A stretch of DNA of 64,000 nt from a virus. How positions within the stretch are numbered: position 1 is the stretch's first letter; each line of letters starts with the position of its first letter. The notes below the pieces were generated by a model, which saw nothing but the letters and a program-made list of their open reading frames with translations, was not told where the DNA came from and ran no database searches. The DNA is taken from IMG/VR virus record IMGVR_UViG_3300005663_000028, positions 62,001-126,000 of that record. One strand, written 5' to 3'. Positions 9,527 through 53,894 of this stretch are shown piece by piece. The translations under genes were made by a program, and so were the position numbers.

Positions 9527-9529
9527 ATT

Positions 9530-37583: not shown

Positions 37584-38029
37584 TAGAAAGGGATCTCGCT
37601 ATCATCAACATCTGGCACCGGCACGGACTCTGGCTTTGGCTCTGACTCTGGTTTTGGCTGTGATGTTTCCGACTTTGTCGGAACATCACTCTTCTTGTGT
37701 CCATTTTTTTCCACCAATTGGAAATCACGAATGTTCATCGAATGTGCAGTACGCTTTTGACCATCCTTTTCCCACTTATCCTGCTTCATGTAACCTGTTA
37801 CATAGACGGGCTGACCAGACTTAACTATTTCAGCCATTTTTTCCGCACGAGTCCCCCATATTTGACCCCTCAGAAAACAAACCTCTTTTTCGTAATCTCC
37901 ATCCTGTTTCTTGTAGCTACGATTGAAAGCCAAGTTAATAGTACAGACCGGAGTATTTTTACTACCAACATACCTCAATTCCGGGTCTCCCGCCGCCACA
38001 CCAACACCAACAACCATTAATTCTGCCAT
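37583..38029 (-). CDS. ssb: Single-stranded DNA-binding protein
   Basis: OB-fold SSB of bacterial type: VGVGVAAGDPELRY, TPVCTINLAFNRSYK, EVCFLRGQIWGTRAEKMAEIV, GQPVYVTGYMKQDKWEKDG. A Pro/Glu/Lys-rich linker leads to an acidic tip VDDSEIPF, the peptide that bacterial SSBs use to recruit replication and repair proteins. 148 aa. Coats ssDNA during replication; likely contacts phage or host DnaE, RecA and nucleases. Confidence 0.93.
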   Translation of the reverse strand: MAELMVVGVGVAAGDPELRYVGSKNTPVCTINLAFNRSYKKQDGDYEKEVCFLRGQIWGTRAEKMAEIVKSGQPVYVTGYMKQDKWEKDGQKRTAHSMNIRDFQLVEKNGHKKSDVPTKSETSQPKPESEPKPESVPVPDVDDSEIPF

Positions 38030-38657: not shown

Positions 38658-40508
38658 TCAGATTAACTTCTGAATATCTGAAATTATGAAGCTACCATTT
38701 TTCTTCTCACCATGAATCAGACCAATAATGTCTTCCTTACAGCATGCCTTTATTCGACTAAACGGGCCTGGGAACACAACCGCACGATCAATCGAATACG
38801 TAGAATCCGACACTGTAAGAATACACATTGACTGACCCGGATTCTTTCCTTTTTTGGTTGTCGTATGTTTGACACTATCGATAATGGCACATATAGCAAT
38901 TGATTCATTATTGGGTGCCTGTGCTACTTCTAGACAAGTATGGGTGGCAAAAGTACTATCGACGTCATCCGCCTGGGAGCAAGACAGAGAAATACCAAGG
39001 AAATGCTTCTCAGCAATCGCCTTAGCCCCATTAGTGTCCGAAATAGGTTCCTCTAGGAGTTCTGCTTTTTCTTCTACTCTTGTACGTCTTGCATCGCTTG
39101 AACAAGGAGGCTTAACCACAATATCCTTGTAACCATTTTGCACCATCAAATCGGCAATACCCTTTTTGGTTCGACCCCCAATACTATTTAACCACAAATC
39201 TTTTTCTTCTGGAGACGTGTATACAAATTTACCATCTCCGTCCATAATTTCGTCAAAAGCTGCGCATACCTGATCCAAATACCCAATCGCTGCACTCACC
39301 AACTCTGGTTTACTCATCTGCCCTATTTTCTTGATTTTGTTCCCTGGGGGTTGGGCCATTTGCAGCAAGATTTCTTGTGTAGTCATTATTCCTTCGGAAA
39401 GCTGATTAAAGAAGTAGACCTTTTCTTTTGCGGTCAACCCTTTAATTTCGACCTTTTTACCTTCAGAATTGTACGCGGCACCCCCAAGAACTATTTCAAG
39501 CTCCCTTACCATCTCACTGCGGCCCATATCAAAGCAGTCACATGCACCAGATTTAATCAACGCTATCCCTACATTCCTGTGGAGCCTTGGAACTGCCGAG
39601 AGGAAGTTGGCCCAGGTGTCTAGAGAGCCTGTTCCTGACGTTTTCCCCGCCGCTGAGATGATTTCCTTGATAGCCGAGGGTCCGACACCCCTAACGTGCG
39701 CCAGGCCGAAGGCAACGCATTTCTGTGGCTTTTCGACAATCTGAAAGTTCACATTTCCACGACGAATATCTGGCGGCAGCACCTTGATATCAAATAATCT
39801 GGCATCCTGTACCAATCTATATATTTCTTCCTTCGGATCACTCTTATAATTGGCAAAAGTGAGGTAACTGGCAAAAAATTCATATGGGAAGTGAGACTTT
39901 AACCACGCTGTGGGATAACTTATTCCTAGTCCATAACTTAAAGCGTGACTTTTATTAAATTGGTACTTTTGGCACTTTTCGATCCATCCGAAAATTTCTT
40001 CAGCCACATCTTTATCAATACCACTATGTTCTTGACATCCCTCGATAAATTTAGTTTTTAGTTTAGCCATCTTTTCTGGTAATTTTTTTCCAATGGCCGA
40101 CCGAAGTGTATCTCCATCGATTGGGTCAAAGCCCGCCAAATCCGTGGCAATGCGCAGCGATTGCTCTTGGAAAACCATCTGAGCGTTGGTAGATTCTAAT
40201 ATGGGCTTCAAAGATGGGTGTAAATAAGATGGCTCTTTGCGTCCAAATTTAACGTCAACATATAGCTCGCTGAGCCCACCTTCGAGGGGTCCAGGTCTCA
40301 AAATACTAACCAACGCAGCAAGTTCTTCTATATTGTCCGGTCTTACTTTTTTTGACCAATCTTGACCTAGACTTTTTTCAAGCTGAAATACCCCGACCGT
40401 GTGGCCTCCGGATATGAGCTTCCAGGTAGCAGGACAATCAAGGCGAACGTCGTTTATGTTGAATTTGCCCCTCTCAACTTGACATTTACAGTTTGTGAAT
40501 GTGATCAT
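38658..40508 (-). CDS. dnaE: DNA polymerase III alpha, C-terminal half (616 aa)
   Basis: Begins just beyond the palm domain. HTVGVFQLEKSLGQ, LVSILRPGPLEGGLSELYVD, QMVFQEQSLRIATDLAGF, FNKSHALSYGL and PTAWLKSHFPYEF are fingers-domain landmarks of DnaE in correct order. Later, GVGPSAIKEI fits the HhH region and the C-terminal part an OB-like region (AICAIIDSVKHTTTKKGKNPG, MCILTVSDSTYSIDRAVVFPG). The three catalytic aspartates are not here but in the 50193-52511 product. The two would need to assemble. Start codon ATG 40508 after GGAGG. Confidence 0.9.
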   Translation of the reverse strand: MITFTNCKCQVERGKFNINDVRLDCPATWKLISGGHTVGVFQLEKSLGQDWSKKVRPDNIEELAALVSILRPGPLEGGLSELYVDVKFGRKEPSYLHPSLKPILESTNAQMVFQEQSLRIATDLAGFDPIDGDTLRSAIGKKLPEKMAKLKTKFIEGCQEHSGIDKDVAEEIFGWIEKCQKYQFNKSHALSYGLGISYPTAWLKSHFPYEFFASYLTFANYKSDPKEEIYRLVQDARLFDIKVLPPDIRRGNVNFQIVEKPQKCVAFGLAHVRGVGPSAIKEIISAAGKTSGTGSLDTWANFLSAVPRLHRNVGIALIKSGACDCFDMGRSEMVRELEIVLGGAAYNSEGKKVEIKGLTAKEKVYFFNQLSEGIMTTQEILLQMAQPPGNKIKKIGQMSKPELVSAAIGYLDQVCAAFDEIMDGDGKFVYTSPEEKDLWLNSIGGRTKKGIADLMVQNGYKDIVVKPPCSSDARRTRVEEKAELLEEPISDTNGAKAIAEKHFLGISLSCSQADDVDSTFATHTCLEVAQAPNNESIAICAIIDSVKHTTTKKGKNPGQSMCILTVSDSTYSIDRAVVFPGPFSRIKACCKEDIIGLIHGEKKNGSFIISDIQKLI

Positions 40509-40545
40509 ACTCTATTATACCTCCAAGTTGAATATTTGTTCCACA

Positions 40546-40575
40546 AAATCAACATTTTTTTGATGAATAATGTTG
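40546..40575 (-). terminator. Probable terminator after the 40576 methyltransferase
   Basis: On the minus strand CAACATT pairs with AATGTTG (40569-40575 with 40550-40556) and is followed by ATTTTG. A further stem (GTTGA...TCAAC with inner TTTGT...ACAAA) lies between it and the polymerase start. This is one of only three clear gaps in the minus-strand block. Confidence 0.5.
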
Positions 40576-41130
40576 TCAATCGTCTACTCCTGGTTTTGGG
40601 ATTACCACTAGCATGAAGTGTTCATCTGGGGACAGTTTCGTGTATACATTCTGGTATTTATCAAACGAGTGGCGGTCGAAAGTGGAGACATGTATTGAGT
40701 TAATACTACCTTTATACGGTACGGTGAGGATAACTGCTTTTTCAGCAGCTTGGTACATTTTCTCTAAGATGACCATAGGGTTGCTGAAGTGCTCTAATGT
40801 CTCTGCTGAAATAATATAGTCATACACTCCAGGGAGATGGTCCGTAATTATATTTATACAATGTGTTTGTACTACTGCTTCTTCACATGCTTTTGTGCTG
40901 AAATCTAATCCTTCAACAATCCAATCTTTGCAAATACTAACCATGTGTGTTGGGCCGAATCCGAATCCACTGCCAATATCTAATATCGTTGCAGTGCATC
41001 TTGGGATTACCGTTGTTATCATATCGTAAAATCGCAATCGTTTCTTAGATGACCAAATTTCTTGAACATCGGCGATAGAATATCTATCGTTCCACCACTT
41101 AAGCGTGTTGTCGTTTTTTTTCTGCGACAT
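40576..41130 (-). CDS. SAM-dependent methyltransferase (184 aa)
   Basis: Start at ATG 41130 after AAAAAGGAGT. Motif I TILDIGSGFGFG, then a DFSTKACEEA strand, DYIISAETLEHF (motif IV) and AVILTVPYKGSI. Class I methyltransferase of the type that methylates sugars or small metabolites. Last gene of the glycan cassette. Confidence 0.8.
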   Translation of the reverse strand: MSQKKNDNTLKWWNDRYSIADVQEIWSSKKRLRFYDMITTVIPRCTATILDIGSGFGFGPTHMVSICKDWIVEGLDFSTKACEEAVVQTHCINIITDHLPGVYDYIISAETLEHFSNPMVILEKMYQAAEKAVILTVPYKGSINSIHVSTFDRHSFDKYQNVYTKLSPDEHFMLVVIPKPGVDD

Positions 41131-41143
41131 ATTAACTCCTTTT

Positions 41144-41743
41144 TTACTGCTTTTCACATACCCAACGATAACACCATCTTGGTGGCTGATATTCCGTAAT
41201 AGCATCGTGTGGTATGTCGTCATCCTTTGTGAGTTGTTCATAACCAAAACCAGCTTTGTCTAGTTCTTGAGCAGACCATGAAGGTGTCTTTCCTGGATAT
41301 ACCGAACCAGTATTCTGGGTTATAATGAATAATCCACCCGTTTTCAATACCCTAGCAGCTTCTGTAAAAAATTGTTTTACCACTTCGTCCTCACAGTGTT
41401 CTATTACAGAGACACTGAACACTATATCTATGGAATTTTTTTTCAAAGGCATGTTTGTCATAGAACCTTGATGATACTGAAGACCAGGGGTTATTTCTCC
41501 AATGGACCACGCAGCCTGATCTATGGCAACAACTAATCCCGGTGAGACATCGGCTAAATGGTGGCAAAACGGATGTGTTCCACCGCCAGACGCTGCGTCT
41601 ACCATACGAAGCCCTGGCTTTACCCATCTCATAGCAAATTCATATTCGTAAGGACGACTCCATCTGGATTTGAGTGGAAGATCGTGCCGACCAACAGAGT
41701 CTATTGTCGGATCACCACTTACAATATATCGTGATTTAATCAT
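41144..41743 (-). CDS. SAM-dependent methyltransferase (199 aa)
   Basis: Methyltransf_11-like: LRMVDAASGGGTHPFC (motif I), LVVAIDQAAWSIG (motif II), IDIVFSVSVIEHC (motif IV), ARVLKTGGLFIITQN. Full-length small class I enzyme. Substrate probably a sugar of the cassette. Confidence 0.8.
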   Translation of the reverse strand: MIKSRYIVSGDPTIDSVGRHDLPLKSRWSRPYEYEFAMRWVKPGLRMVDAASGGGTHPFCHHLADVSPGLVVAIDQAAWSIGEITPGLQYHQGSMTNMPLKKNSIDIVFSVSVIEHCEDEVVKQFFTEAARVLKTGGLFIITQNTGSVYPGKTPSWSAQELDKAGFGYEQLTKDDDIPHDAITEYQPPRWCYRWVCEKQ

Positions 41744-41757
41744 TTTTCATTTCCTTT

Positions 41758-42402
41758 TCAGATTATGTTTTTGTTGACAAAAAGATGACAAGGCCAATCG
41801 TTGGTTTCTGTGGTCATTAAGAAAAATTCAGACATTCTTTTAATAGCGTCTGTTGTTTGTGCTTCTGGATAAATTCTTCCTCCATGAAAAGAGACGCAAA
41901 GCTGCCCTATTTTATTTCGTAAATCAGGTTTTCTCATAATTTCATTTATTATTTCAAGTTCAGCACCTTCACAGTTACAAAAGAGAACATCTATGCGAGG
42001 TATATCGTTTGTTTTCAATATAGACTCCACACTTGTTGATTTCACCTTAGTCCTTTGTGTCAACCTCATACTTGTCTCTTTCTTGTGTCTTGGATAGATA
42101 CTATGAGAACACCCTCCTGGGAATTCAAAAAAATCAATTTCACCATCTTCTCCTGTCACGGCTAATTGACGAGTAATAATTTTTGATCCAAATACTGCCT
42201 GATTTAACAAATGACAATTCTCTTCATTTGCTTCATAAACAATAGTCGTACCACTGAATTTTTGATCAAGAGCAATCGCATGAATTCCAGTTCTCGATCC
42301 AATATCTATAAAGATTGGCTCTGGTGGCAAAATTCCTTTTGCAAAAAATAAATAACGACTACACCTGTCTAGCTGTAATCGTGTTTTAATGTGTTCATCC
42401 AT
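41758..42402 (-). CDS. FkbM-family methyltransferase (214 aa)
   Basis: IFIDIGSRTGIHAIALDQ (motif I), IVYEANEENCHLLNQAV, TRQLAVTGEDGEIDFFE and VLFCNCEGAELEIINE fit the FkbM order, with the DxEGxE-type segment appearing as NCEGAE. These enzymes O-methylate sugars or lipids in bacterial glycan loci. A second FkbM-like gene is at 44737. Confidence 0.82.
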   Translation of the reverse strand: MDEHIKTRLQLDRCSRYLFFAKGILPPEPIFIDIGSRTGIHAIALDQKFSGTTIVYEANEENCHLLNQAVFGSKIITRQLAVTGEDGEIDFFEFPGGCSHSIYPRHKKETSMRLTQRTKVKSTSVESILKTNDIPRIDVLFCNCEGAELEIINEIMRKPDLRNKIGQLCVSFHGGRIYPEAQTTDAIKRMSEFFLMTTETNDWPCHLFVNKNII

Positions 42403-42417
42403 TTCATCACCCTTTCT

Positions 42418-43125
42418 TTATTCGGACCATTCGGTTTGATTATGATCATCTGGTTTGTACTTTCTTATGAGAGGCAGACCGGAAACCTTATAGTCGCCAA
42501 ATGCGTGTAGAATAATATGTCCATCTCTATTGTCCCATCCTGGAGGCAAAATCCCGAGACTTAAGTCTTTAGCCTTTGTCGTTGCAGGGAATAGTGCTGG
42601 CATATCTCGCCCACAACCAAGCAACCTCCAATAGTATTCCCATTTCGTGAACAGCTTTGTGGTATTTTCTGTTTTACGAAAAAAGAAAACACCTTCCTTA
42701 TAAATCGTTGCGGGATAATCTTCCTGATTCATGAATTTGCCATATAACCATGCCATAGGTAATCTCTGTCTGTCTATCCCTATTCGTTCGAAGACTGAGA
42801 ACATCACATCATAGTTCTTCGCTGTTGTAAATCCACCTAAAAACTCCGCTGATTGAACAGCGGTATCTGTATCGCAGAATAATGTAATATCAAACGGTGA
42901 AAACAAATCTGTTCGAATTTTGTAATATCGATTATCTTTCTGTTCAACACCAACTACTTCAAATGATACGTTCGGTAAGTCATCCCATTCTTTACATCTT
43001 TGATCTTTTATTAAATTTGTAATCACCCTAACTGGAATGTCGCTATATTTTCTTATCAAAATTACCGAGTGAGCACACTGATAGTCATACTGTTTGCCAA
43101 AAGCAACATATAGTACTCCATTCAT
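42418..43125 (-). CDS. GT-A glycosyltransferase, GT8-like (235 aa)
   Basis: Starts GVLYVAFGKQYDYQCAHSV. TLFCDTDTAVQS holds the metal-binding DxD, and GVFFFRKTENTTKLF a later strand. Likely transfers a hexose; donor unknown. Located in the run of five transferase/methyltransferase genes. Confidence 0.72.
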   Translation of the reverse strand: MNGVLYVAFGKQYDYQCAHSVILIRKYSDIPVRVITNLIKDQRCKEWDDLPNVSFEVVGVEQKDNRYYKIRTDLFSPFDITLFCDTDTAVQSAEFLGGFTTAKNYDVMFSVFERIGIDRQRLPMAWLYGKFMNQEDYPATIYKEGVFFFRKTENTTKLFTKWEYYWRLLGCGRDMPALFPATTKAKDLSLGILPPGWDNRDGHIILHAFGDYKVSGLPLIRKYKPDDHNQTEWSE

Positions 43126-43151
43126 CTCTAGTCCCCTTTTCTCAAATTCTA

Positions 43152-43985
43152 TTAAGCGCCATAACTTTTCATTACTTGACGCAATATAGAGCCAATTTTT
43201 GGTGACTTTATTACTAATTCGTCAAATAGTGAACTTTGACATGCGGCAAGAAATTCTGATTTTCTGAAAGAATATCCTCTGGATTTTTTAAGATTATCGA
43301 TTCCCAATTCTGCCAAGCGAATATGAACTCCATGATGGGCGGATGTTGTCAAAAAAGACCAGTAGGTATCTGAAAGATTTTTCGGTATTTCACCCAAATC
43401 AGACTCCAGAATCATTTGTAAAAGAAACCGTTCATTAAAACCTGCCCCTATTTTTGGTACTCTACGTCCAAGTTCGCCAGCAATAAGTTCTGAACGATAT
43501 TTGTCAATTACTGGCATCATTATCTTAAACCATTCCTTTGGTTTTACGACATGAATACCACCCATTCTATTCGGACCAGAACTTGCTCGAATACAGTTGC
43601 TATATGGTATGTCAAGTAATTCACAATGAGATAAGTGTTGTTGCATATAAGACGGAAACTCTTTACAAATAGCCATATCTACGTCTCCGATAGAAAGACA
43701 ATCAAATAGTTCGAATACTGGATCGAACATTAGCCACCTCAAACACTTTATGGTCTCGCCATCCACCCTACCGTATTCATCAAAAGCATTCTCTTTGACA
43801 ACAAAGCTGAATGGCAAAATACTTAATATCTCTTCAATGTTTTCCTCTATGTGTCTATCCAAAAATATCATTTTATGTGATTCGGGGTAAGCCTGATCTA
43901 AAAAATATAACCACCAAGGAATATATTGTTGATACGATCCATTAGCTACTGTAGTAAAACACATTTTATTTGCATCTAATATCAT
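43152..43985 (-). CDS. GT-A glycosyltransferase-like protein (277 aa)
   Basis: CFTTVANGSYQQYIPWWLYFL fits the first helix of GT8-type transferases, and CLSIGDVDMAI provides a DVD metal motif. C-terminal half unusual. The ATG overlaps the upstream stop (ATGA-type). Specific family not certain. Confidence 0.65.
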   Translation of the reverse strand: MILDANKMCFTTVANGSYQQYIPWWLYFLDQAYPESHKMIFLDRHIEENIEEILSILPFSFVVKENAFDEYGRVDGETIKCLRWLMFDPVFELFDCLSIGDVDMAICKEFPSYMQQHLSHCELLDIPYSNCIRASSGPNRMGGIHVVKPKEWFKIMMPVIDKYRSELIAGELGRRVPKIGAGFNERFLLQMILESDLGEIPKNLSDTYWSFLTTSAHHGVHIRLAELGIDNLKKSRGYSFRKSEFLAACQSSLFDELVIKSPKIGSILRQVMKSYGA

Positions 43986-44740
43986 GTTTGTATTCCCATA
44001 GCTTTTCTAAACATTTGTCCGAGTAGGGTGGAAGATTCTAGAAGCTGTTCGCGATTCATTGTTAAGGATTGGGAATTACCCTGCTTGAACATTTGATGGA
44101 AAAGCATTGTACCCAAAGAATCCTCGGAACAGTATTTATCAATTGATTCTTTCCCATCAAATCGGAAGGCTTCCCAAGAAGGAATTTGCATCAAGAGACG
44201 ATAATCCAAATGGTGATATTTCTTTCCCTTAACCGCCTGTCTGATAGTGGCTGGACCTAGTGATCCCCATGTGAATATGTGTTTTGGTGAATGAAGATTC
44301 AATTGATACTCAATGACCGAGACGGCTTTCGAGATCACCTCACCGCGCTGCGTAGAGAGTAGGAACCCGCATTCCGGTTCTCCGTAGTTAAGGCCGGGAG
44401 ATGCTGTTGCTACTAGATCGATTCCATCTTTCAGAAAATCATACAATGGCTTTAGGCTTTTAAACAGTATTAGGTCCGAGTCAAGCCAAATTCCTCCGTG
44501 TTCTCTCAACAACATATATCGAAGATAGTTCGATCGATTATTTATTTGCGATATTTGGAAGAAGGTGTCTGATATATTTGGTAGAAACTGTCTGACATTT
44601 TCAGTAGTCACCATGTGGATATCAAAATCTCCTTGGCAGTGTCTCCTGATTGTCTCTAGACACAACTGGATATAAGCAGGTGATTCTGTTGCTGGTGGAA
44701 TATTATCCCAATATAGCCAAATTTTAGGTTTTTCCATCAT
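43982..44740 (-). CDS. GT32-like glycosyltransferase (252 aa)
   Basis: PKIWLYWDNIPPA, NRSNYLRYMLLREHGGIWLDSDLILFKSL: the R..L...GGI(Y/W)xDxD block is the signature of the DXD-type Gly_transf_sug family (GT32, as in capsule and O-antigen loci). Overlaps the FkbM gene by 4 nt. Confidence 0.85.
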   Translation of the reverse strand: MMEKPKIWLYWDNIPPATESPAYIQLCLETIRRHCQGDFDIHMVTTENVRQFLPNISDTFFQISQINNRSNYLRYMLLREHGGIWLDSDLILFKSLKPLYDFLKDGIDLVATASPGLNYGEPECGFLLSTQRGEVISKAVSVIEYQLNLHSPKHIFTWGSLGPATIRQAVKGKKYHHLDYRLLMQIPSWEAFRFDGKESIDKYCSEDSLGTMLFHQMFKQGNSQSLTMNREQLLESSTLLGQMFRKAMGIQT

Positions 44741-45312
44741 CTCATCACCGACTGAAGGAGAACGTTGCGATGATCACCCATGTAAATATTCATATTCTTG
44801 ATTCCCATCGACTTCATCTTCTCCCTCAGTTCACCTTCTTGGTGTTTAGCACTAGGTGATTTCCGGACATCAAAGTCTATCAATAGCGACTTAACCATAT
44901 TATACTCGCCGGACTCAAGCAAATTCATAACAATCTCGCATTCACTTCCCTCTGCATTAATTTTCAGGAAAACCTCATCTCCCACAAAAATGTTTTCTCT
45001 GAACCATTCAGACGCATTAATAAATTGACATTTAGTAATACGTGGTTCTGGGTTACAGGTGGTTTCATAGTCTAGATGAACGCTAGCTCCCTGCGACCCC
45101 TCGTTGTGTAAATCCATTTTGCACGTCTCTGACCACAATCCAGCTTTGACGATTGTCACTCTTGGATTATTCTCAAACTTGCGATCCAAAATGTCGTGAC
45201 ATATTGGAGAAGGATCAAATCCAACAATCTTGTCGACCTTGAATCTCGGACTCAATAACAACTCTATCGTCTGCCCAATATTACTGCCTACATCTAGAAA
45301 TACTCTTGCCAT
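44737..45312 (-). CDS. FkbM-family methyltransferase (191 aa)
   Basis: ARVFLDVGSNIGQTIELLL (motif I), IVGFDPSPICHDIL, VTIVKAGLWSET and FLKINAEGSECEIVMNLL, the last being the FkbM D/N-x-EG-x-E block. It immediately follows the 45313 gene on the minus strand with no gap and overlaps the next by 4 nt. Methyl acceptor probably a glycan. Confidence 0.85.
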   Translation of the reverse strand: MARVFLDVGSNIGQTIELLLSPRFKVDKIVGFDPSPICHDILDRKFENNPRVTIVKAGLWSETCKMDLHNEGSQGASVHLDYETTCNPEPRITKCQFINASEWFRENIFVGDEVFLKINAEGSECEIVMNLLESGEYNMVKSLLIDFDVRKSPSAKHQEGELREKMKSMGIKNMNIYMGDHRNVLLQSVMR

Positions 45313-46155
45313 CTACTTTCTCCAATCAAAATATACAAAGCGAGCCAGAAATACGTCATTGTGAATATGAAATGCGAACTTGAGTTTCGACAGCAGTCCC
45401 GCTACTTGCAATTGACGAAAAGCAAATTCATGATTAGACGGAACACCCTCCCTTAAAAACTTACCTATATTATCATACAGATTACCAAATTGGTCCATAA
45501 TCTCTGAACCACCAAAAAACCAATAATCCGCCAATGCTGGATAGTGTGGAGTGTGAGGATAGCCAGTATGTGTATGTCGAAGTTCTTTGTTTTCTTTCTT
45601 GTCCCACCCGTGAAAAAACCAGTCTGCATGACGTATTCCTTGTCCGTCGGGCATTTTCATTACACACCAATTACTAGCGTAGAAATGATTCTGGTCAAAC
45701 TGATCAAAATGGACATCCACCATCCACGCAACATCAAATCTACCAATCATAACCATATCATATTTGAATTCATGCTCCATTTCATACTGCTTCTTAAGTT
45801 GCACACACCTCTGTATGCCATACCATCTGGCAATCGTAATCTGGCTTTTGGAATCTATTTTGTCTGAATAATTATTACCAACCTTGGCTCCGATAGTGTT
45901 GAATCTTGGATCAGATTCAAATATCGTTGCTTTTGGATTGTAAGCAGCAACTAGGTCTTGTTCTGCATCGACACTGGGTGTATGTATGAAGACATCAACG
46001 TCATTATGAGCTAGTATGTGTTTTCGATAATGCTCTAGTCCTTTTCTCCATTCGACAGGTGTACGTTTACCAGATTTGCCATCCCACATCTGACCATTAA
46101 CTGTTTTTTTGCCCGGATGCAAAGCCATTCCTGTTAAACACAAGGCTATTTTCAT
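45313..46155 (-). CDS. Putative glycosyltransferase, R-x-D type (280 aa)
   Basis: KIALCLTGMAL start, VDVFIHTPSVDAEQ, and MVMIGRFDVAWMVDV, a pattern of glycosyltransferase-like proteins in bacterial polysaccharide loci in which RxD replaces DxD. Ends with SNHEFAFRQLQVAG. No closer family can be named by eye. Confidence 0.6.
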   Translation of the reverse strand: MKIALCLTGMALHPGKKTVNGQMWDGKSGKRTPVEWRKGLEHYRKHILAHNDVDVFIHTPSVDAEQDLVAAYNPKATIFESDPRFNTIGAKVGNNYSDKIDSKSQITIARWYGIQRCVQLKKQYEMEHEFKYDMVMIGRFDVAWMVDVHFDQFDQNHFYASNWCVMKMPDGQGIRHADWFFHGWDKKENKELRHTHTGYPHTPHYPALADYWFFGGSEIMDQFGNLYDNIGKFLREGVPSNHEFAFRQLQVAGLLSKLKFAFHIHNDVFLARFVYFDWRK

Positions 46156-46165
46156 TGCTTCACTC

Positions 46166-46912
46166 CTATTTTTTCTTTAATTTTCCAAGATTAGTTTTGT
46201 CGACAATAATTGATGAAGTATCAACTTGTTCTGCAACATTTTTTTGTATTTCTAATCTCATCCATTCTTTTTCTCTTTTTATTATGTCTGCTGGGGTAGA
46301 AGGACTACCACACCTCTCGTCTAAAGGTAAGTTGATAGCTATAAATTGTCTTTTTGAGAGTATCGTTAATCCAGCACGTCTATTACCCATTCCCCATGGG
46401 AAGTCGATAATATCATAACTACCGTCATAGTATTTAGTTCGTAGGTCAAGAACAAATTCGCGACAGCCATCTATACGAAGCGTGTCGTGGAATGCAATCA
46501 TACCTGTTGGCGAAAGCAATGGATAGATAGTGTCAAAATCATTCTTAAGTCCAGGATATGAATGACACCCATCTATAAAAGCGAAATCTATTACGGGGCA
46601 TTCTGACAATAATATTTCTTTGAATTTTTGCGTTGTGGTGTCAACTTTATGGAGAGTAAAGTTATTATGCCCTTCTTCCACAAGTATTTTTTCAACAGAT
46701 TGTTGAGAATATTGCATTTGGAATTGTTTGTTTAATCCATGAGTACCCCAAAGATCAAACCCATACACATGTCCGCTGGTTTCTTTGGCCGCTTCGCATA
46801 GGTATTTAGTTGTTCCACCCCTAAAAACACCTATTTCTACACAAACCTTATATCTGTTAAATATTATGAGTTGCTTAATGAACACACTTTCACTTCTAGC
46901 ATGTTCTTTCAT
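46166..46912 (-). CDS. Methyltransf_24-type SAM methyltransferase (248 aa)
   Basis: Start ATG 46912 overlaps the upstream stop (ATGA). CVEIGVFRGGTTKYLCEA (motif I), GHVYGFDLWGT, FAFIDGCHSYPGLKNDFD and GMIAFHDTLRIDGC fit the DGxHxYxxxxxD metal-containing methyltransferase family that modifies sugars (catechol-type fold). Confidence 0.8.
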   Translation of the reverse strand: MKEHARSESVFIKQLIIFNRYKVCVEIGVFRGGTTKYLCEAAKETSGHVYGFDLWGTHGLNKQFQMQYSQQSVEKILVEEGHNNFTLHKVDTTTQKFKEILLSECPVIDFAFIDGCHSYPGLKNDFDTIYPLLSPTGMIAFHDTLRIDGCREFVLDLRTKYYDGSYDIIDFPWGMGNRRAGLTILSKRQFIAINLPLDERCGSPSTPADIIKREKEWMRLEIQKNVAEQVDTSSIIVDKTNLGKLKKK

Positions 46913-48483
46913 GACAACCTTCCTTGTTCGTTCAGAAGATTCCACAACATAAGCTTCCCAAGATGAAACAACATTTCAGCATATGGTTGGTGATGCAATG
47001 ATGCTATGTTAAGATAAATCAATGCCGTCAATACTTTGACCTTATGGTGGTCATAATGATTGCGAATCAAATATTGTTTTAGCCATGTTTCACAGTCAAT
47101 AAGTGTCTGTCTCCTAAGTAGGTCAAAGTTAACCGTCGTACCATAAATGTCTATTTCATACAATCCTTGGTGAATGATTCCATGAGATACTATTAGTCCA
47201 TGCCATAGCTTTGCTAGGTCATAGTAAATGTCACCATAGTCCTTTAATCCACCAAAGTTCTGTCTCCAATCCAGTAGGCAAAAACCTTCTCCTGTGTCTA
47301 TGGTATTCTCAAAATGCAGATCGCCATGGAATCGTACCGGTATGCCAGTAGACATCCACGACCAATCTATCCGACCTAGTAATTCTGCAACGGAAGGAAC
47401 ATCCACACCATTAATACATTGTCTAGAATCATGATAGCCAAATCGTTCAAAATAATCATGTATTCGTTGAGTGGTTTTATCCTTATAAAATTCTAGATAT
47501 ACTTTCTGGATTTCTTTTGTCAACAGTTTTTGTTCGCCCCAAAGACCCTCTAACCACGTTAGAAAATCCTTGAATCGTGATGTAGTAATAGTGTTGGACA
47601 AAACCCGTCCATCTACCATTGGATAGCAATACATACTAGCAGTACTTCCCTCAAGCTTTGGAACATACCCTTCTAAAGTATTGGCTCTTACCACTCTTTC
47701 TGCTGTGAAGTCTTGGTCTGTAGAGAATTTTATTACCCTACCATTGCAAAACCAAATATGTTCCTGTTCTTTCGGGAGAATATTTGGATCACCATCCCTG
47801 CTAAAAGTATCATTCGCATAAGCAAGAGCTTCTACTGTTCCTGTATCATACCAAGTAAACTTTTTACCTCGAACTGTCTGTTCTTTTACCATTCTTGAAA
47901 GGGCACCCGCTTCACCCTGACCTGTTCCACCAACAGTTTTTATAATTTTCATGTTTCCCCAAAAGGCTTTGTAATCATAAATACCACAAATACCAATATA
48001 GGCTTTAGCTTCAGTGTGTATACCCTTTTCCCCAACATCTTTCACTACAGTATCATCCCATGAATCTACCACAATGGAACGATAATCTTGACCAGCACGA
48101 ATATCGGCGTATCCCATCCAATCATGATCCGGTACTGGAACATCCTCGGTTACTATCGCATCATTCGTGAAGAAAATGAACGGACATTGCAATATTTCTT
48201 CGTAGTCACATAAATCAGATGTAAGACCCTTTCTATTAGCCCAAATAAATGTGAACTTGCGATCCGGATAAGCCAAAGTTAAAAACTCTTTCACCAATTC
48301 ACCCTTGTGTCCAAGATCAATGATCAATTCTATGTCTGGCGGAAACTTCTCTATGATGTACGATATAATAGGACGGTTAGCTACGGGGACCAGGGTCTTA
48401 TTAACATGATCACAATGATTCCCTAAGCGAGAACCAACACCGGCAGTTGGTATCAGCACCTTGTACTTCTTATTCTCTTCCAT
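46909..48483 (-). CDS. Sugar nucleotidyltransferase fused to APH-type kinase (524 aa)
   Basis: Residues 7-245: NTP-transferase fold with LIPTAGVGSRLGNHCDHVNKT (the GxGxRL nucleotide loop), NKTLVPVANRPII and FFTNDAIV. Residues about 250-524: aminoglycoside/choline-kinase-like phosphotransferase with RFHGDLHFENTI and CLLDWRQNF, the HGDxxxxN and metal-binding D motifs. Such a fusion can phosphorylate a sugar or alcohol and then activate it with NTP, in one protein. Start ATG 48483 is spaced 6 nt from GGAGG. Confidence 0.82.
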   Translation of the reverse strand: MEENKKYKVLIPTAGVGSRLGNHCDHVNKTLVPVANRPIISYIIEKFPPDIELIIDLGHKGELVKEFLTLAYPDRKFTFIWANRKGLTSDLCDYEEILQCPFIFFTNDAIVTEDVPVPDHDWMGYADIRAGQDYRSIVVDSWDDTVVKDVGEKGIHTEAKAYIGICGIYDYKAFWGNMKIIKTVGGTGQGEAGALSRMVKEQTVRGKKFTWYDTGTVEALAYANDTFSRDGDPNILPKEQEHIWFCNGRVIKFSTDQDFTAERVVRANTLEGYVPKLEGSTASMYCYPMVDGRVLSNTITTSRFKDFLTWLEGLWGEQKLLTKEIQKVYLEFYKDKTTQRIHDYFERFGYHDSRQCINGVDVPSVAELLGRIDWSWMSTGIPVRFHGDLHFENTIDTGEGFCLLDWRQNFGGLKDYGDIYYDLAKLWHGLIVSHGIIHQGLYEIDIYGTTVNFDLLRRQTLIDCETWLKQYLIRNHYDHHKVKVLTALIYLNIASLHHQPYAEMLFHLGKLMLWNLLNEQGRLS

Positions 48484-48817
48484 AATCATCCTCCAACCTC
48501 ACAACATCATCTAGTTCTGTTGTAGAACATTCAAGATAGACGGCAGGATGATCAGGGAAACTAAATGTGAGCCCACCTTTCATGCGATGATTGACTCCTG
48601 GAAGAATAGTTATATGATCTCCCTTGGTTAGCGTAAGTATTTCATGATCAAAATAGATCAATAGCACACCACTCAACACATATATCGTCTCGGTCTTATG
48701 TTTATGGTATTGCTTGCTACAGCGTTTACCTGGATTCATACACAATCTCTTGACAACGTACTTATCTCCAACAAAAAGTATCTCTTCTTTCCCCCATGGC
48801 TTTTCTATCGTTTTCAT
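48470..48817 (-). CDS. Cupin, type II phosphomannose isomerase-like (115 aa)
   Basis: EKPWGKEEIL near the start, YHKHKTETIYVLSGVLLI (two metal-binding His and a Glu), and GDHITILPGVNHRMKGG: the HxH-x3-E ... H cupin metal set as in ManC-type isomerase domains. Likely isomerises a hexose phosphate or epimerises a sugar. Overlaps the NTP-transferase start by 14 nt. Confidence 0.78.
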   Translation of the reverse strand: MKTIEKPWGKEEILFVGDKYVVKRLCMNPGKRCSKQYHKHKTETIYVLSGVLLIYFDHEILTLTKGDHITILPGVNHRMKGGLTFSFPDHPAVYLECSTTELDDVVRLEDDYGRE

Positions 48818-48818
48818 T

Positions 48819-49811
48819 TCAACACCCCAAAGATTCCAAGTAATGATCAATCACTCTCGTTATCTCACAAAGAATACCTTCTCTCACATCGCATTCTTCT
48901 GCAAGTTCACTTATCAATCGTTCATATAAAGGTTCATGGTAATGATAATGACCGGCTACCAAGGCACATAAGTATTGACCTTCCCAACTGTCAATCCATT
49001 TTTTCCAATTGTCATGATGAACTACACGACACACGAATCCCCTAGTGTCTATACCATAAATAAGAGCTTGAGACAAAACATAGTTTGTTTGTACGACACC
49101 CAACTGTGGTGCGATATTAACTGCATCTACTATTCCACGACGCCGCACTATCTGTTCTCTGGTTAAATAGTCGGCATTGTGCTCTTTCAGTTTTGTACCA
49201 CAACTTTTGAGAATTTCGTGCATCTTGCCTACGCTGTCTGTATTAAATGCACCAGTATTACGTGTTTCACGAACCAAACTCCCAGTCTGCACGACGTAAA
49301 AGACAGGGTTGGCCACTTGCTGGCACGCCTGTACGTCTTCTCTGATCTTGTTTACATCTAATTCTGCTATACCAACATTGTCGTCGGTACCTATTTCAAA
49401 CATAACGTCAGACCTAATATTCTTGGCAAATTTCATAAGTTCAACAGTTCGGTTAATTTTTTCTTGATGAGACATTTTAGCATGACACAGATCAATATGA
49501 ATTAGATCAAATCCGTTTTCTAGATCACACCTAATTGTATCCCTAACGGATTGTATCGTATCATCTTTTGGTCCGAATCCGGGTCCACAGTGATCGCGAC
49601 AAATGGTTACGTTAGATTTCGGGTACTTTCTTTCTATCTCGGCAATATAGTTCATATACTGTTGTGTGGTGAATACATATCCGCTATTTTTATCTACTTG
49701 ATTTCTAGAGCATATCAGCATCAATGGCTTACACCGAGTTTGTGAGCAATAGAAAACTGCCTCAATGATTTCCTTACTCATGGGTCCGCAGGCTAGCTTA
49801 GATATCGACAT
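48819..49811 (-). CDS. GatZ/KbaZ-like tagatose-bisphosphate aldolase family protein (330 aa)
   Basis: TIM-barrel protein with LMLICSRNQVDKNSGYV, TICRDHCGPGFG and FDLIHIDLCHAKM, matching the EATSNQVNQxGGY / GDHLGP / KIHLD pattern of the GatZ/AgaZ non-catalytic subunit of tagatose-1,6-bisphosphate aldolases. Shorter than the 420-aa bacterial version. A sugar-phosphate aldol or isomerase step in the cassette is inferred; it may be an independent enzyme. Confidence 0.6.
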   Translation of the reverse strand: MSISKLACGPMSKEIIEAVFYCSQTRCKPLMLICSRNQVDKNSGYVFTTQQYMNYIAEIERKYPKSNVTICRDHCGPGFGPKDDTIQSVRDTIRCDLENGFDLIHIDLCHAKMSHQEKINRTVELMKFAKNIRSDVMFEIGTDDNVGIAELDVNKIREDVQACQQVANPVFYVVQTGSLVRETRNTGAFNTDSVGKMHEILKSCGTKLKEHNADYLTREQIVRRRGIVDAVNIAPQLGVVQTNYVLSQALIYGIDTRGFVCRVVHHDNWKKWIDSWEGQYLCALVAGHYHYHEPLYERLISELAEECDVREGILCEITRVIDHYLESLGC

Positions 49812-50191
49812 TTTAGAAATTCATCCCCTTCCATTCCTTTGTTTCTTTCTAAATTAACACAAAGTGCCGTGTCAACACCTTTTCTTTCTGGTTTAACGTC
49901 GTTTATAACCATTCTCGGTCCTCGTGGCAAATCCATGATTAAATGATTCCACCACAATCCTGCCTTGCGCATCTGATCTTCTGTTGTCTTACGCATGCTT
50001 CCTGGCCTTCCAGTGGTTATGACAAGGGTATATCCTTTATGGCCCCATTGTTTGAACGCCTCTTTTACTCCGGGCAGCAATTCGCACGAATTAGACATAA
50101 TTGCACCTATGTCACCTTGATGCTTAAACACACAACCGTCTAAATCACAGAAAATTGTTTTAATATGTATCGCGTGATCAATCTGTGTCAC
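49793..50191 (-). CDS. HAD-family phosphatase (132 aa)
   Basis: GTG start at 50191 with GGGGAGG six bases upstream (an in-frame ATG at 50212 inside the polymerase gene is less well placed). TIFCDLDGCVF is HAD motif I with Asp nucleophile and acid, TLVITTGRPGS is motif II, and MVINDVKPERKGVD is motif IV-like. Resembles sugar-phosphate phosphatases of GmhB/KdsC scale. Likely removes a phosphate from a sugar intermediate. Confidence 0.78.
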   Translation of the reverse strand: MTQIDHAIHIKTIFCDLDGCVFKHQGDIGAIMSNSCELLPGVKEAFKQWGHKGYTLVITTGRPGSMRKTTEDQMRKAGLWWNHLIMDLPRGPRMVINDVKPERKGVDTALCVNLERNKGMEGDEFLKCRYLS

Positions 50192-50192
50192 T

Positions 50193-52511
50193 TTAATCCT
50201 CCCCGTCACCATCCGGATTATTAACCAGATTCATAGCCATCCACATCTTGTCTAGCGCGACGACCCCGAGGAAATCAAATTTAACAGCACCCATCTTCTC
50301 TGCATCTGCCATTTCCAAACCAACAACACGATCCTGGGTTTTCGCATCATAAACTAACGGAACCAGTTCTTCGATTGGTCTATCCGCAATAACTACACCT
50401 GCTGCGTGTCTAGATTGTGATTTTTTAGTACCTTCAATTCTCATAGCTTGGTCAAAAAGAGGCTTATACCATTCATAAGCTTCCTTAACGTATTCAACAT
50501 TGTGAACGGCCCATTGCAAGATACCATAATCATCACCGAACTCTTTGCGGGCTTCTTTTAATTCATCGGCAATTGACGCATCATCTGGCATATGTTTAGT
50601 AATGTCATTACATAGGTCGTGTGGAGATATGCTAATGTCTTTTTCATCGTTACCCTCTTTTACAGCCCTTACCTTCATCAAATGCTTAACCGTATCCGGA
50701 TTCGCACGGAATACTTCTTTTAGGGCGGCTTTTCCCTGAAGTCGTCCAAAGGTGATCATCTGAGCAACATATTCGTCACCCCATCGCCCTTTAAGGTATT
50801 CAATAACCCTGCCACGAAAAACAACTCCGATATCTGTATCGATGTCAGGGAGACTAATGTGACCATCGTGAGTCTTCACTTTTTTCGCAACATCCAGTTC
50901 TTCTGGCCCACATATTGTTATTCCAAGACCGTATGCTAGATGTGAATTTGACGGATTGACTGCTGGCTCAAGCTTGATCATATCGTACAAATACATCCAC
51001 ATCCTAGAATTATTCTTATCTATCCATTCAACCTCTTCCCTCATCGTGTCGGTAAACTTGACAGAATCACGATCCCTTATGTGTCTTGCTAAATGCTTCG
51101 ATACCGACTTCCTTTCTTCGTCTATATCCCTGGTGTGGAATAATTCGAAATTCTCCGACATCCAGGATACGAAGTCGGTTTGCCCGACATCGAAGTGGGG
51201 TGGAATGTTGCGACTTATATTATAAAACCGCTCAAAGTATAGTCCGTATTCGATTGGATCAATGCCAGTGATGCCCGTTAGATAGTTTACCAACGACCCA
51301 GCCCCAGAACCACGCCCCTTGCCACGGGGTCCATTATTTTTATCGATGAACTGACAAGCGTCCCAAACGATAAGAAAATAGTCTGCCAACCCAGCTTCCC
51401 TGACAACAATTAATTCTCTTTGCAGTCTTTCCCAGTATATCTTTTTCTGTGCAGGGTCCAGGTGAGTCAATTTAACCCCAGCGCCTTGAATACAAAGATG
51501 TTTGAGATATTCATTTGAGTCGAGTCCCAACTTTTCTGATTCATCATTTGTAAAAACTGGTAGATATGGACTATGCCCCATTGGGGAGTACTCTATTTGA
51601 GCGGCAATGTCTAGTGTGGTTTGCAGTTCTTTCTCTGTAAAGTGTTCTCTCATTTCTGCATAAGACGGAATATAGTAGTTGTCAGAGAGAAAGAAGTCCA
51701 TGACATCTTGACCTGTAGATATTTTGTAATCCTGAGCTTCTTTTGTCGTATGTAAAAATGCATAAAGCAAAAGTCTCTGGTCCTCAGCATCTTCTTTTCT
51801 ACAATAATGAGCATCAATAGATGCAACTGTCGGTACTCCAGTTTCTTCACTAAGCTCTCTTAAGCAGTCTAACACAACTGCTTGGATTCCCATGCCGGAA
51901 TTCTGAAGTTCAAGAAAATAGTTGCCTTTTCCAAAAACAGCGATATGTTTATGGATAATTGCTTTACCAACTTCTTTCCAATTGGGTTTTAGGTGTTGTC
52001 TAGACCCAGCAGCGTTTCCGTTTCTACCAGCCATGATCGCTTCTTTGAAGTCTGTGAACAATGCCATAGGCAATGCCCCGGCGATGCACGCTGATAGGAA
52101 TATCAGATTACCTCGTTTTGCAAATGGGGCTATCCCAGCTAAATCAATGCGCGGCTTGCGATAGAAATGATGGGGCTGATTAGATTCACTAACTAAACCC
52201 ATTAGGTCTTCGATTCCCCGGTCGTTCTTTGCCAGAACTATTAAGTGGTTCCGTTTGTTGTTGTCGTTGTTTTTGATTGTTGGGTCTTGTTCACAAACGT
52301 ACATTTCGATGCCTAAAATGGGTTGGATTTTCTGTTTTTTGCATTCGTCATAGAATGTTTTCATGCCTCCAATTCCACCATGGTCGGTAATCGATGCTGC
52401 TGGTAAACCTAGTTCTACACAACGATTCACAATGTCCTTGGGAGAACTGAGTCCATCCAGAAGGCTAAAAAACGAATGGATATGGAGTGGCGCATATGTT
52501 TTCTTTGACAT
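50193..52511 (-). CDS. dnaE: DNA polymerase III alpha, N-terminal half (772 aa)
   Basis: PHP domain (1-270) with PLHIHSFFSLLDG, SITDHGGIGG, ELQNSGMG and SIDAHY; the metal ligands look intact, so proofreading or phosphatase activity is possible. Palm: GRGSGAGSLVNYLTGI (about 399-414), LPDIDTD (554-560) with the catalytic aspartates, MITFGRLQGKAAL, SRHAAGVVIADRP, and KFDFLG (744-749) with the third aspartate. The chain stops 23 residues later. About 120 residues (431-550) are inserted before LPDIDTD compared with E. coli. Needs the C-half product. Confidence 0.93.
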   Translation of the reverse strand: MSKKTYAPLHIHSFFSLLDGLSSPKDIVNRCVELGLPAASITDHGGIGGMKTFYDECKKQKIQPILGIEMYVCEQDPTIKNNDNNKRNHLIVLAKNDRGIEDLMGLVSESNQPHHFYRKPRIDLAGIAPFAKRGNLIFLSACIAGALPMALFTDFKEAIMAGRNGNAAGSRQHLKPNWKEVGKAIIHKHIAVFGKGNYFLELQNSGMGIQAVVLDCLRELSEETGVPTVASIDAHYCRKEDAEDQRLLLYAFLHTTKEAQDYKISTGQDVMDFFLSDNYYIPSYAEMREHFTEKELQTTLDIAAQIEYSPMGHSPYLPVFTNDESEKLGLDSNEYLKHLCIQGAGVKLTHLDPAQKKIYWERLQRELIVVREAGLADYFLIVWDACQFIDKNNGPRGKGRGSGAGSLVNYLTGITGIDPIEYGLYFERFYNISRNIPPHFDVGQTDFVSWMSENFELFHTRDIDEERKSVSKHLARHIRDRDSVKFTDTMREEVEWIDKNNSRMWMYLYDMIKLEPAVNPSNSHLAYGLGITICGPEELDVAKKVKTHDGHISLPDIDTDIGVVFRGRVIEYLKGRWGDEYVAQMITFGRLQGKAALKEVFRANPDTVKHLMKVRAVKEGNDEKDISISPHDLCNDITKHMPDDASIADELKEARKEFGDDYGILQWAVHNVEYVKEAYEWYKPLFDQAMRIEGTKKSQSRHAAGVVIADRPIEELVPLVYDAKTQDRVVGLEMADAEKMGAVKFDFLGVVALDKMWMAMNLVNNPDGDGED

Positions 52512-52512: not shown

Positions 52513-53460
52513 TTATTTCTCCTCAGGTTTTCCTATTGCAAGCTGACCTTCATAAGTCAAATTAGTGTAACGATCTTCTATGTATTCACTTCCCATTGTG
52601 TTTAAGTCCGACCAAACCCTATTGCAAATGCCGTTGTTGTTGAATGAACACATCTTGCAAGTCCAATGTCTATTTCTCAAAAGCAATGTGTCCTGCTTTA
52701 CCGTTGTGAAAAATCTATGTAATACCGCTACAGTCCTAGCCAAATCATCTTGAGAAAATGCTACTGTTACTGGCCCACCGTCGTTTGCATAGTAGAATGT
52801 AACGATTATGTTTTTGTATTGAGGATACAGAAAATACGCCGCCAAGTGATATAGTCGAGGCTGCACTTCTTTTGTAAGAACTTCTTCATCTATGTCTTCT
52901 TGTGTGTGAAAGTTTTTTCGATTACCAGTTTTCCAGTCCACAATTTCAATCGTTTCTTTGTCGATTTCTTTAACTAGGTCAATAAAGCCTCTCGCAGCAA
53001 ACTGATGTTTATTTCCATCTTTGTCAGTACATTCCCATTCTTCTCCTGGCATCTCCATTGCAAACCATTGTTCGATACCTATTGATTCGTTATCATATGG
53101 ATTGTAGTGTTTATCAGCTAATATTGTTTCTAAGGCAACCCTACACTTTTTGTGGTCAGCGGCTTCCTTAAGGTCTCCAGTTTCTTTATCTATACGAGTA
53201 GTCACCCGTCTAATCGCAATTTCAGGAGATTCTGCTGTCAACTCATCCCAGGCCCGATCCAACAACCACATTGGGTCAACATTAGTCTTGCCTCGCCTTT
53301 TCAGTTGACACATCCACTCAAGGGTTTTATGAACAATGCTTCCTTGCAGAGCCGCCAACCCAGTTTTAGTTTCCATCCCCAATATATAATGAAGAAAATA
53401 AGCAAATGAACAATGATAGTACATCCCAATTGCGCTGGCGCTGCATTTTGTTATTTTCAC
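52513..53460 (-). CDS. Cas4/RecB-like PD-(D/E)XK exonuclease with Fe-S cysteines (315 aa)
   Basis: Cys near the N-terminus (YHCSFAYF), LQGSIVHKTLEWM (His of motif I), FAARGFIDLVKE (Asp), IEIVDWKTG (E-x-K of the active site), QPRLYHLAAYFL, and CKMCSFNNNGICNR, which with the first Cys makes a 4Fe-4S set. PDDEXK_1/AddB type. Probable 5'-3' or 3'-5' DNA resection in recombination. Follows directly upstream of polymerase N-half. Confidence 0.85.
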   Translation of the reverse strand: MKITKCSASAIGMYYHCSFAYFLHYILGMETKTGLAALQGSIVHKTLEWMCQLKRRGKTNVDPMWLLDRAWDELTAESPEIAIRRVTTRIDKETGDLKEAADHKKCRVALETILADKHYNPYDNESIGIEQWFAMEMPGEEWECTDKDGNKHQFAARGFIDLVKEIDKETIEIVDWKTGNRKNFHTQEDIDEEVLTKEVQPRLYHLAAYFLYPQYKNIIVTFYYANDGGPVTVAFSQDDLARTVAVLHRFFTTVKQDTLLLRNRHWTCKMCSFNNNGICNRVWSDLNTMGSEYIEDRYTNLTYEGQLAIGKPEEK

Positions 53461-53894
53461 GATTTGTCTTCTTTGTCCTGCTCTGTGTATCGAGCGGGTC
53501 CATCCTGAAACAAGTGCTGGAGATGAATTACTTTATTCTCCATGTCATTTAGTAAGGCTGCCATCTCACATTTTGGTGGACGATCGTCATTTAATTTCTT
53601 ACATTCTATCGCATCAATAAGTACTCCGATACATGCTAAAGCACTTGCCAGATGAGGAACTTCGGTTTTTTGATCAGCCCATTCCCCATTAAACCACTTA
53701 TCTAGATGACGATTTACTGCTGCAAAATAAACAGAAGCCTTAACACCAGAGACTCTGTAGTTATAGCCCCCATACTTCAGATCACCTTCAGTCATAGCTA
53801 GAGCACCATACGCCCTTGCTGTAGTAGGAAATAGGCTCAAATCTAGTCTAGCTGTTGCCATTCTATCTTTAGGATTTGTATCTTTTTTCTTCAT
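53457..53894 (-). CDS. dATP/dGTP diphosphohydrolase-like protein (DUF5664, MazZ-related) (145 aa)
   Basis: NPKDRMATARLDLSLFPTTARAYGALAM, KYGGYNYRVSGVKASVYFAAVNRHLDKWF, and HLASALACIGVLIDAIE fit the small family named after the cyanophage S-2L diphosphohydrolase. It would cleave dNTP to dNMP and pyrophosphate, changing the dNTP pool. No PurZ or DatZ is seen in this window, so a diaminopurine genome is not supported. TAATG overlap with primase. Confidence 0.7.
   Translation of the reverse strand: MKKKDTNPKDRMATARLDLSLFPTTARAYGALAMTEGDLKYGGYNYRVSGVKASVYFAAVNRHLDKWFNGEWADQKTEVPHLASALACIGVLIDAIECKKLNDDRPPKCEMAALLNDMENKVIHLQHLFQDGPARYTEQDKEDKS

What the first reader, a model, noticed from the sequence alone, without database searches (positions are those of the whole stretch)
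38658..52511. Replicative DnaE split into two genes about 9.7 kb apart
The N-half (772 aa) contains PHP, palm and all three catalytic aspartates and stops shortly after KFDFLG. The C-half (616 aa) begins with the fingers landmark GVFQLE. A sugar/methylation cassette lies between. The break is not the cyanobacterial split-intein site, which here (FNKSHALSYG) is inside the C-half, and no intein ends are seen.
Basis: partly seen in the sequence, partly recalled or inferred. Interest (0 to 1): 0.8.

Follow-up and report, generated by a model that had tools for sequence, protein, structure and literature searches.

The report
Phage replicase split into two genes
This uncultivated phage, with many relatives, makes its DNA-copying enzyme (DnaE) as two separate proteins, cut between the catalytic palm and the fingers with no splicing device found, so the two pieces most likely have to assemble into one polymerase.

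Summary
On the minus strand, window 50193-52511 encodes PHP + palm with all three catalytic Asp (772 aa). Window 38658-40508 encodes fingers, HhH and OB (616 aa). A 9.7-kb, 13-gene sugar/methyl-transfer cassette lies between. The record is a 179.5-kb virus contig with no other DnaE, PolA, PolB or beta clamp detected.

Profiles of the halves match E. coli alpha 4-576 and 583-903, so nothing is missing. The break falls inside a 45-49-residue linker of constant length in fused relatives. The split is no accident: it recurs in over 100 IMG/VR loci. They form a deep phage clade (100/100 support for the window's part) with a fused sister group. A single origin inside the clade is not rejected (AU p = 0.34). 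Isolate phiT1 was split independently at the same boundary (p = 7e-7).

The cassette did not cause the split. In the sister lineage L138 the halves adjoin as two genes, and in most other split relatives a DnaQ-like exonuclease sits between them. No intein ends or intron was found, and each half has its own ribosome-binding site. Best reading: an unspliced two-polypeptide C-family replicase. New variant of a known kind (phage genes-in-pieces); assembly and activity are inferred.

The parts
50193..52511 (-). dnaE-N: 772-aa N-half of C-family DNA polymerase (PHP + palm/thumb)
   Evidence: ORF; Pfam PHP and DNA_pol3_alpha; profile matches E. coli alpha 4-576; AF2 pLDDT 91, Foldseek best hits DnaE structures; SD AGGAG upstream
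51897..52487 (-). PHP domain (residues 9-205 by Pfam); all nine metal-ligand positions intact (H10 H12 D19 H44 E69 H89 C142, and D233 H235 just beyond the Pfam match)
50853..51218 (-). ~120-aa mostly helical insert in the palm just before the catalytic PDIDTD; only in the window's clade
   Evidence: 116-125 residues in the window clade against 4-9 elsewhere; AF2 helices
50838..50846 (-). catalytic aspartates D556 and D558 (PDIDTD)
   Evidence: invariant in 30 N-halves, aligned to E. coli Asp
50274..50276 (-). third catalytic aspartate D746 (KFDFLG), 26 residues before the stop
38658..40508 (-). dnaE-C: 616-aa C-half (fingers, HhH, OB)
   Evidence: ORF; Pfam DNA_pol3_finger and HHH_6; profile matches E. 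coli alpha 583-903; AF2 pLDDT 88 and Foldseek to DnaE over full length; own GGAGG upstream
40395..40508 (-). N-terminal head of the C-half with CxC...LDC (C7, C9, C25) before GVFQLE
   Evidence: C7, C9 and C25 conserved in the window clade; CxC or CGC in most clade-I split phages, absent from E. coli alpha
40026..40469 (-). fingers domain (PF17657)
   Evidence: E = 8.6e-42
39942..39959 (-). FNKSHA landmark, near the cyanobacterial DnaE split-intein site; uninterrupted here, intein-occupied in relative G004
39513..39788 (-). helix-hairpin-helix (HHH_6)
38661..38906 (-). C-terminal OB-fold strands; no tau-binding domain follows
   Evidence: AF2 strands 536-614; OB-type hits in Foldseek
49793..50212 (-). 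cargo gene 1: HAD-type phosphatase, start codon overlaps the end of dnaE-N
   Evidence: family f3 in 6 loci
48819..49811 (-). cargo: aldolase-like (GatZ/KbaZ, F_bP_aldolase)
48470..48850 (-). cargo: cupin / mannose-6-phosphate isomerase-like
46909..48489 (-). cargo: protein with a C-terminal APH-like kinase (weak Pfam match); N-terminus reads like a sugar-nucleotidyltransferase (sequence inference)
46166..46945 (-). cargo: methyltransferase (Methyltransf_24)
45313..46155 (-). cargo: unknown (phrog_13607)
44737..45312 (-). cargo: methyltransferase (phrog_8156)
43982..44740 (-). cargo: glycosyltransferase (DXD, Caps_synth)
42418..43985 (-). cargo: two glycosyltransferase-like ORFs (by eye) without family hits
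40576..42402 (-). cargo: three methyltransferases (FkbM type, Methyltransf_11, Methyltransf_11)
52513..56483 (-). conserved upstream replication block: PD-(D/E)XK nuclease, dGTP_diPhyd_N, Toprim primase, DnaB helicase
37583..38029 (-). SSB downstream of dnaE-C; syntenic in relatives (SSB assignment from sequence)

Best explanation
This is the phage's own C-family replicative DNA polymerase (DnaE), encoded and translated as two polypeptides: alpha-N (PHP + palm/thumb, all catalytic aspartates) and alpha-C (fingers + HhH + OB). Shown: both pieces are complete, complementary and conserved; the cut lies in the linker between palm and fingers; each gene has its own start and ribosome-binding site; no splicing element was found; the arrangement is old. 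Inferred: the chains associate non-covalently through the normal palm/fingers interface, possibly helped by the new CxC-bearing head of alpha-C, and rebuild a complete active site. The intact PHP may serve as proofreader, because the window lineage lacks the DnaQ-like exonuclease that sits between the halves in other split phages. The host supplies the clamp. The gap between the halves later became an insertion hotspot for sugar/methyl-transfer cargo.
For: Complementary domains: E. coli alpha 4-576; 583-903; Foldseek. Active-site residues invariant. Both halves under strong purifying selection (dN 0.11-0.33, dS almost always saturated). Congruent evolution (r = 0.97 in the window clade, 0.87 overall). 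No other replicative polymerase in the record. N-tails vary freely (12-34 aa) while the C-half start is conserved, as real termini should be. Own SD for each gene. No Rfam intron. Split conserved in a deep clade. Independent second split in isolate phiT1. Precedent: split PolB 43A/43B of phage 25 co-purifies and is active (PMC2988022).
Against: No experiment shows association or activity, and I could not model the two chains together (the tool takes single chains). The clade is almost entirely uncultivated contigs; the tree is biased towards relatives found by searching with the halves. The proofreading and clamp statements rest on absence of Pfam matches, and divergent versions could be missed. 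The record may be incomplete.
Confidence: 0.82

Rival explanations
1. The two halves are joined covalently in trans, by a split intein or by trans-splicing RNA, into one full-length DnaE.
For: Close relatives carry six full inteins at four sites in these same genes, and cyanobacterial DnaE is joined by a split intein. A free-standing intein-like ORF lies just upstream of dnaE-C in relative L058.
Against: Only 23 residues follow KFDFLG in the N-half and 38 precede GVFQLE in the C-half, too short for intein halves of the usual size. No intein family hits in either window ORF. No group I or II intron in 37-54 kb. N-tails differ in length and sequence between close relatives, and L138 has the genes adjacent with their own SD.
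Confidence: 0.04
2. The split polymerase is decaying or non-essential and the host replicase copies the phage.
For: Phages often use host polymerases, and no beta clamp is encoded.
Against: Catalytic and PHP residues invariant across the window clade, saturated dS with low dN, conserved replication block, retention in over 100 loci of great age.
Confidence: 0.06
3. Insertion of the sugar/methylation cassette (or a homing endonuclease) broke an intact dnaE in the window's ancestor.
For: The cassette lies exactly between the halves, and homing endonucleases are known to split phage genes (PMC2988022; KLEB27-3 has an HNH gene between DnaE pieces).
Against: Sister lineage L138 is split with the halves adjoining and no cargo. 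Most other split phages have an exonuclease there instead (57 of 65 split loci). The cassette changes content between close relatives and has no endonuclease in the families identified.
Confidence: 0.05
4. Alpha-N and alpha-C also act separately, for example free alpha-N as a PHP nuclease, with the replicase assembled only at certain stages.
For: Separate genes 9.7 kb apart with separate SDs allow unequal expression. PHP alone is a separate gene in several isolates.
Against: No separate regulation seen: all genes run one way, and promoter- and terminator-like sites are at chance level.
Confidence: 0.1

Closest known systems
T4-type split PolB, gp43A/gp43B of Aeromonas phages 25 and 44RR (Petrov et al. 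2010, via PMC2988022)
   Same: A phage replicative polymerase made as two polypeptides from two genes without splicing; the pair co-purifies and is active.
   Different: B-family, not C-family; insert is a homing endonuclease or an untranslated spacer; few phages.
Aeh1 NrdA 'genes-in-pieces' ribonucleotide reductase (PMC2988022)
   Same: Functional enzyme from two separately coded pieces.
   Different: Different enzyme; caused by a mobE homing endonuclease; no such gene here.
Cyanobacterial split-intein DnaE (known biology; noted in PMC3919608)
   Same: dnaE encoded by two distant genes.
   Different: Joined by a split intein at the FNKSH region; here the break is elsewhere and no intein is present.
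PHP | polymerase splits in actinophages and a Bacillus phage (Djokovic, Weasels2, Papyrus, BpsS-140, JingleBells; [quoted passage not shown]
   Same: Phage C-family polymerase spread over two genes.
   Different: The break is after the PHP domain, leaving palm and fingers together.
Rossellomorea phage phiT1 gp20/gp18 (PV767480)
   Same: Same palm/fingers break, two genes, in an isolate.
   Different: Independent origin (AU p = 7e-7); only a 49-aa ORF between; no paper naming it as split was found.

Membership tests
C-family DNA polymerase (PolIII alpha, DnaE type) | PHP domain, palm with three catalytic Asp, fingers, HhH, OB | tested here: met
   Over the two chains together:
C-family DNA polymerase (PolIII alpha, DnaE type) | Single polypeptide carrying palm and fingers | tested here: not met
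   Two ORFs 9.7 kb apart; this is usual for the family rather than required for the fold or chemistry, so the claim is 'a split C-family polymerase'
C-family DNA polymerase (PolIII alpha, DnaE type) | Polymerase activity | not testable with these tools
   Needs the purified pair
PolC | Exonuclease inserted in PHP | tested here: not met
   PHP is continuous, no PF00929 domain; PolC structures score far below DnaE
Split-intein DnaE | Intein halves flanking the break | tested here: not met
Trans-spliced or intron-split gene | Group I/II intron at the junction | tested here: not met
   (Rfam only; unknown intron types not excluded)
Phage genes-in-pieces enzymes | Two polypeptides, complementary and conserved, no splicing | tested here: met
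Phage genes-in-pieces enzymes | Pieces assemble into an active enzyme | not testable with these tools
   Needs co-purification and assay
Phage genes-in-pieces enzymes | Homing endonuclease at the break (typical cause, not required) | tested here: not met
   No endonuclease family hit in the window cassette or in the relatives' cargo ORFs that were scanned

The most novel reading that the evidence does not exclude
A large, ancient clade of phages runs a constitutively two-chain C-family replicase, whose palm and fingers meet only by protein-protein contact through a dedicated joint (new CxC...C head on alpha-C). In most of the clade the core is built from an alpha-N / DnaQ-like exonuclease / alpha-C operon, and in the window's lineage the exonuclease was lost, proofreading passed to the intact PHP domain, and the gap became a cargo hotspot. 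The split would be an adaptation, for example controlled assembly or resistance to host anti-replisome factors, rather than a tolerated accident.
Probability: 0.25. Interest if true: 0.8.

Novelty: new variant of a known kind. Interest (0 to 1): 0.62.

Why it matters
C-family replicases copy nearly all bacterial genomes and are almost always one chain through palm and fingers. A natural, long-lived two-chain version would show that the active site can be assembled from two proteins. It gives a ready-made split polymerase for structural work, and it makes testable why a phage lineage would keep a replicase in pieces. It also warns that annotation pipelines may count such phages as having two partial or broken polymerases, or, where only one half is recognised, as lacking one.

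Tried and rejected
- Assembly artefact or chimera: rejected by many independent contigs.
- Cassette insertion as the cause of the split: rejected by L138 and the exonuclease-bearing relatives.
- Intein or intron joining: rejected.
- Second DnaE, PolA or PolB elsewhere in the record: none found. Beta clamp: none found.
- One origin for all splits including phiT1: rejected. One origin inside the phage clade: not rejected, so I do not claim several origins there.
- The AU test on the 67-row mixture-model tree did not finish, so a 43-row LG+G4 tree was used.
- A close-relative scan with the C-half alone found nothing; alignment queries were needed.
- The bacterial genome scan found only a distant fused DnaE.
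- Promoter/terminator scan uninformative, at chance level.
- dN/dS could not be given as a ratio for most pairs because dS is saturated.
- Literature: no paper in the held library describes a palm/fingers split DnaE in phages. Subscription journals are mostly not held, including Kazlauskas and Venclovas 2011.
Full report
What is there. The window is positions 62001-126000 of a 179,553-base virus record from IMG/VR. On the minus strand, 50193-52511 encodes 772 aa and 38658-40508 encodes 616 aa. Pfam gives PHP and DNA_pol3_alpha for the first, fingers and HHH_6 for the second. A profile of 30 N-halves matches E. coli alpha residues 4-576, and the best stretch of a profile of 30 C-halves matches 583-903. 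The two genes together therefore cover a full catalytic alpha with nothing lost. AlphaFold models are confident (pLDDT 91 and 88) and Foldseek returns DnaE structures first for both. All three palm aspartates (D556, D558, D746) and all nine PHP ligand positions (HHDHEHCDH) are intact. No second DnaE, PolA, PolB or beta clamp was found in the record.

Where the cut is. Fused DnaEs in which both landmarks could be located, distant phages, E. coli and the fused sister group alike, have 45-49 residues between the KFDFLG-type motif and VFQLE. In split phages the N-half carries a 12-34 residue tail and the C-half a 22-78 residue head. The cut is thus inside the linker between palm and fingers. N-tails are variable even between close relatives, while the start of the C-half is conserved, as expected of true termini. 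Both genes have their own Shine-Dalgarno sequence (AGGAG and GGAGG). No Rfam intron lies in the region, and neither ORF has intein model hits.

It is conserved. Ten relatives at 72-79% N-half identity were found first. The C-half was found in six of these records, always downstream on the same strand, about 5-11 kb away; the other four contigs end before it could appear or are too short. Wider scans show the halves in separate ORFs throughout; none of the 80 best C-half loci had N and C in one ORF. Of 79 further loci from a scan with basal members, 65 are split, 13 fused and one undetermined; some of these come from contigs already seen. Both halves show low dN with saturated dS, and their distance matrices agree (r = 0.97 in the window clade).

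Phylogeny. A 67-row tree puts 37 split rows and one fused row in one clade (100% SH-aLRT). A 43-row tree with more fused relatives resolves three phage groups: I, the window plus exonuclease-bearing phages, 15 rows all split, 100/100; II, 8 split rows, 88/86; III, 10 fused rows, 100/100; II and III join weakly at 81/55. Holding I and II together is not rejected (p = 0.34), so one origin in this clade is possible, as are two. Isolate phiT1, whose gp20 and gp18 are cut at the same boundary, is rejected from that group (p = 7e-7). The same boundary has therefore been cut at least twice.

What lies between, and what it does not explain. In the window the gap holds 13 same-strand ORFs. Those with a family or a readable kinship are an HAD phosphatase, an aldolase, a cupin, a nucleotidyltransferase/kinase-like protein, glycosyltransferases and methyltransferases. 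Close relatives share some families and swap others as modules, in gaps of 5-11 kb, while helicase, primase, nuclease, dnaE-N, dnaE-C and a glycosyltransferase gene keep their order, with SSB detected in most of the contigs that reach it. In L138, sister to the window clade, the halves are neighbours with 7 bases between the stop of one and the start of the other, and no cargo. In 57 of 65 split loci a DnaQ/RNase T-type exonuclease gene lies between the halves (family match; first seen). The break is older than the cassette.

Proofreading. The window-clade records tested lack a PF00929 exonuclease, whereas L138, L091 and L114 have one. The window clade keeps a full PHP ligand set. In many exonuclease-bearing phages the PHP is altered or lost (C to H in most, no recognisable ligand set in L060, L062, L090, L106, L110). 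This fits, but does not prove, PHP proofreading in the window lineage.

Inteins. Relatives carry six inteins at four sites: PHP (G004, G008), RPGPLE| (G001, G008), ELRK| and FNK|SHA (both G004), confirmed by Intein_splicing and, in part, LAGLIDADG models. None is at the break, and the window's genes have none.

Known precedents. Split PolB 43A/43B of Aeromonas phage 25 co-purifies and is active, and split NrdA of Aeh1 is functional (PMC2988022). Microbacterium cluster EF phages were noted to have two genes for DNA polymerase III alpha (PMC7302621); in Microbacterium phage JingleBells two such genes have the sizes of a PHP | polymerase cut, as in Djokovic, Weasels2, Papyrus and BpsS-140. I found no paper describing a palm/fingers split, within a library that lacks most subscription journals.

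Verdict. The finding is real and correctly read. The best explanation is an unspliced, two-polypeptide C-family replicase of phages. Association and activity are inferred, not shown. It is a new variant of a known kind.

Noticed in passing
L027 (G004), L031 (G008), L028 (G001): Six full inteins (264-400 aa, some with LAGLIDADG or HNH-like regions) at four sites in the split dnaE genes of close relatives; one sits in FNK|SHA, a few residues from the cyanobacterial split-intein site.
   Followed up: partly
L058:9425-9976: Free-standing intein-like ORF directly upstream of dnaE-C, resembling the FNK|SHA intein of G004 by eye but with no Pfam or NCBIfam hit. Could be a remnant or a moved mini-intein.
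   Followed up: partly
window 50853-51218: Helical insert of 116-125 aa in the palm immediately before the catalytic PDIDTD, confined to the window's clade.
   Followed up: partly
window 40395-40508: CxC...LDC cysteine motif in the head of the C-half, shared by most clade-I split phages; possible metal site or docking element.
   Followed up: partly
L060, L062, L090, L106, L110: N-halves of about 530-560 aa without a recognisable PHP ligand set but with the exonuclease gene between the halves where it was looked for.
   Followed up: partly
L086 and L087, between the halves; L090:9270-9965: An 820-849-aa RCC1-like gene, and a sulfotransferase-like gene, inserted next to the exonuclease (names by eye).
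   Followed up: no
L138:12079-12115: dnaE-N and dnaE-C adjacent with 7 bases between stop and start, the second with its own SD; looks like the pre-cargo state.
   Followed up: yes
L031 (G008) dnaE-C: FNLSHA instead of FNKSHA: the conserved fingers lysine is replaced.
   Followed up: no
L208 (Bacillus phage KLEB27-3): DnaE in two pieces with an HNH endonuclease gene between, broken near the fingers motif; likely intron or homing insertion.
   Followed up: no
L207 (Bacillus phage vB_BpsS-140): A PHP | polymerase-split dnaE is present but not annotated in the record.
   Followed up: no
L029 (G005) 3708-6083: N-half broken into two ORFs although close relative G010 is intact; probably a sequence error.
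   Followed up: no
window 35255-37012: 585-aa glycosyltransferase-like gene kept next to the replication block in nearly all relatives that reach it.
   Followed up: no
window 6607-10003: Four tRNA genes (Ala, Pro, Ala, Gln) on the + strand.
   Followed up: no
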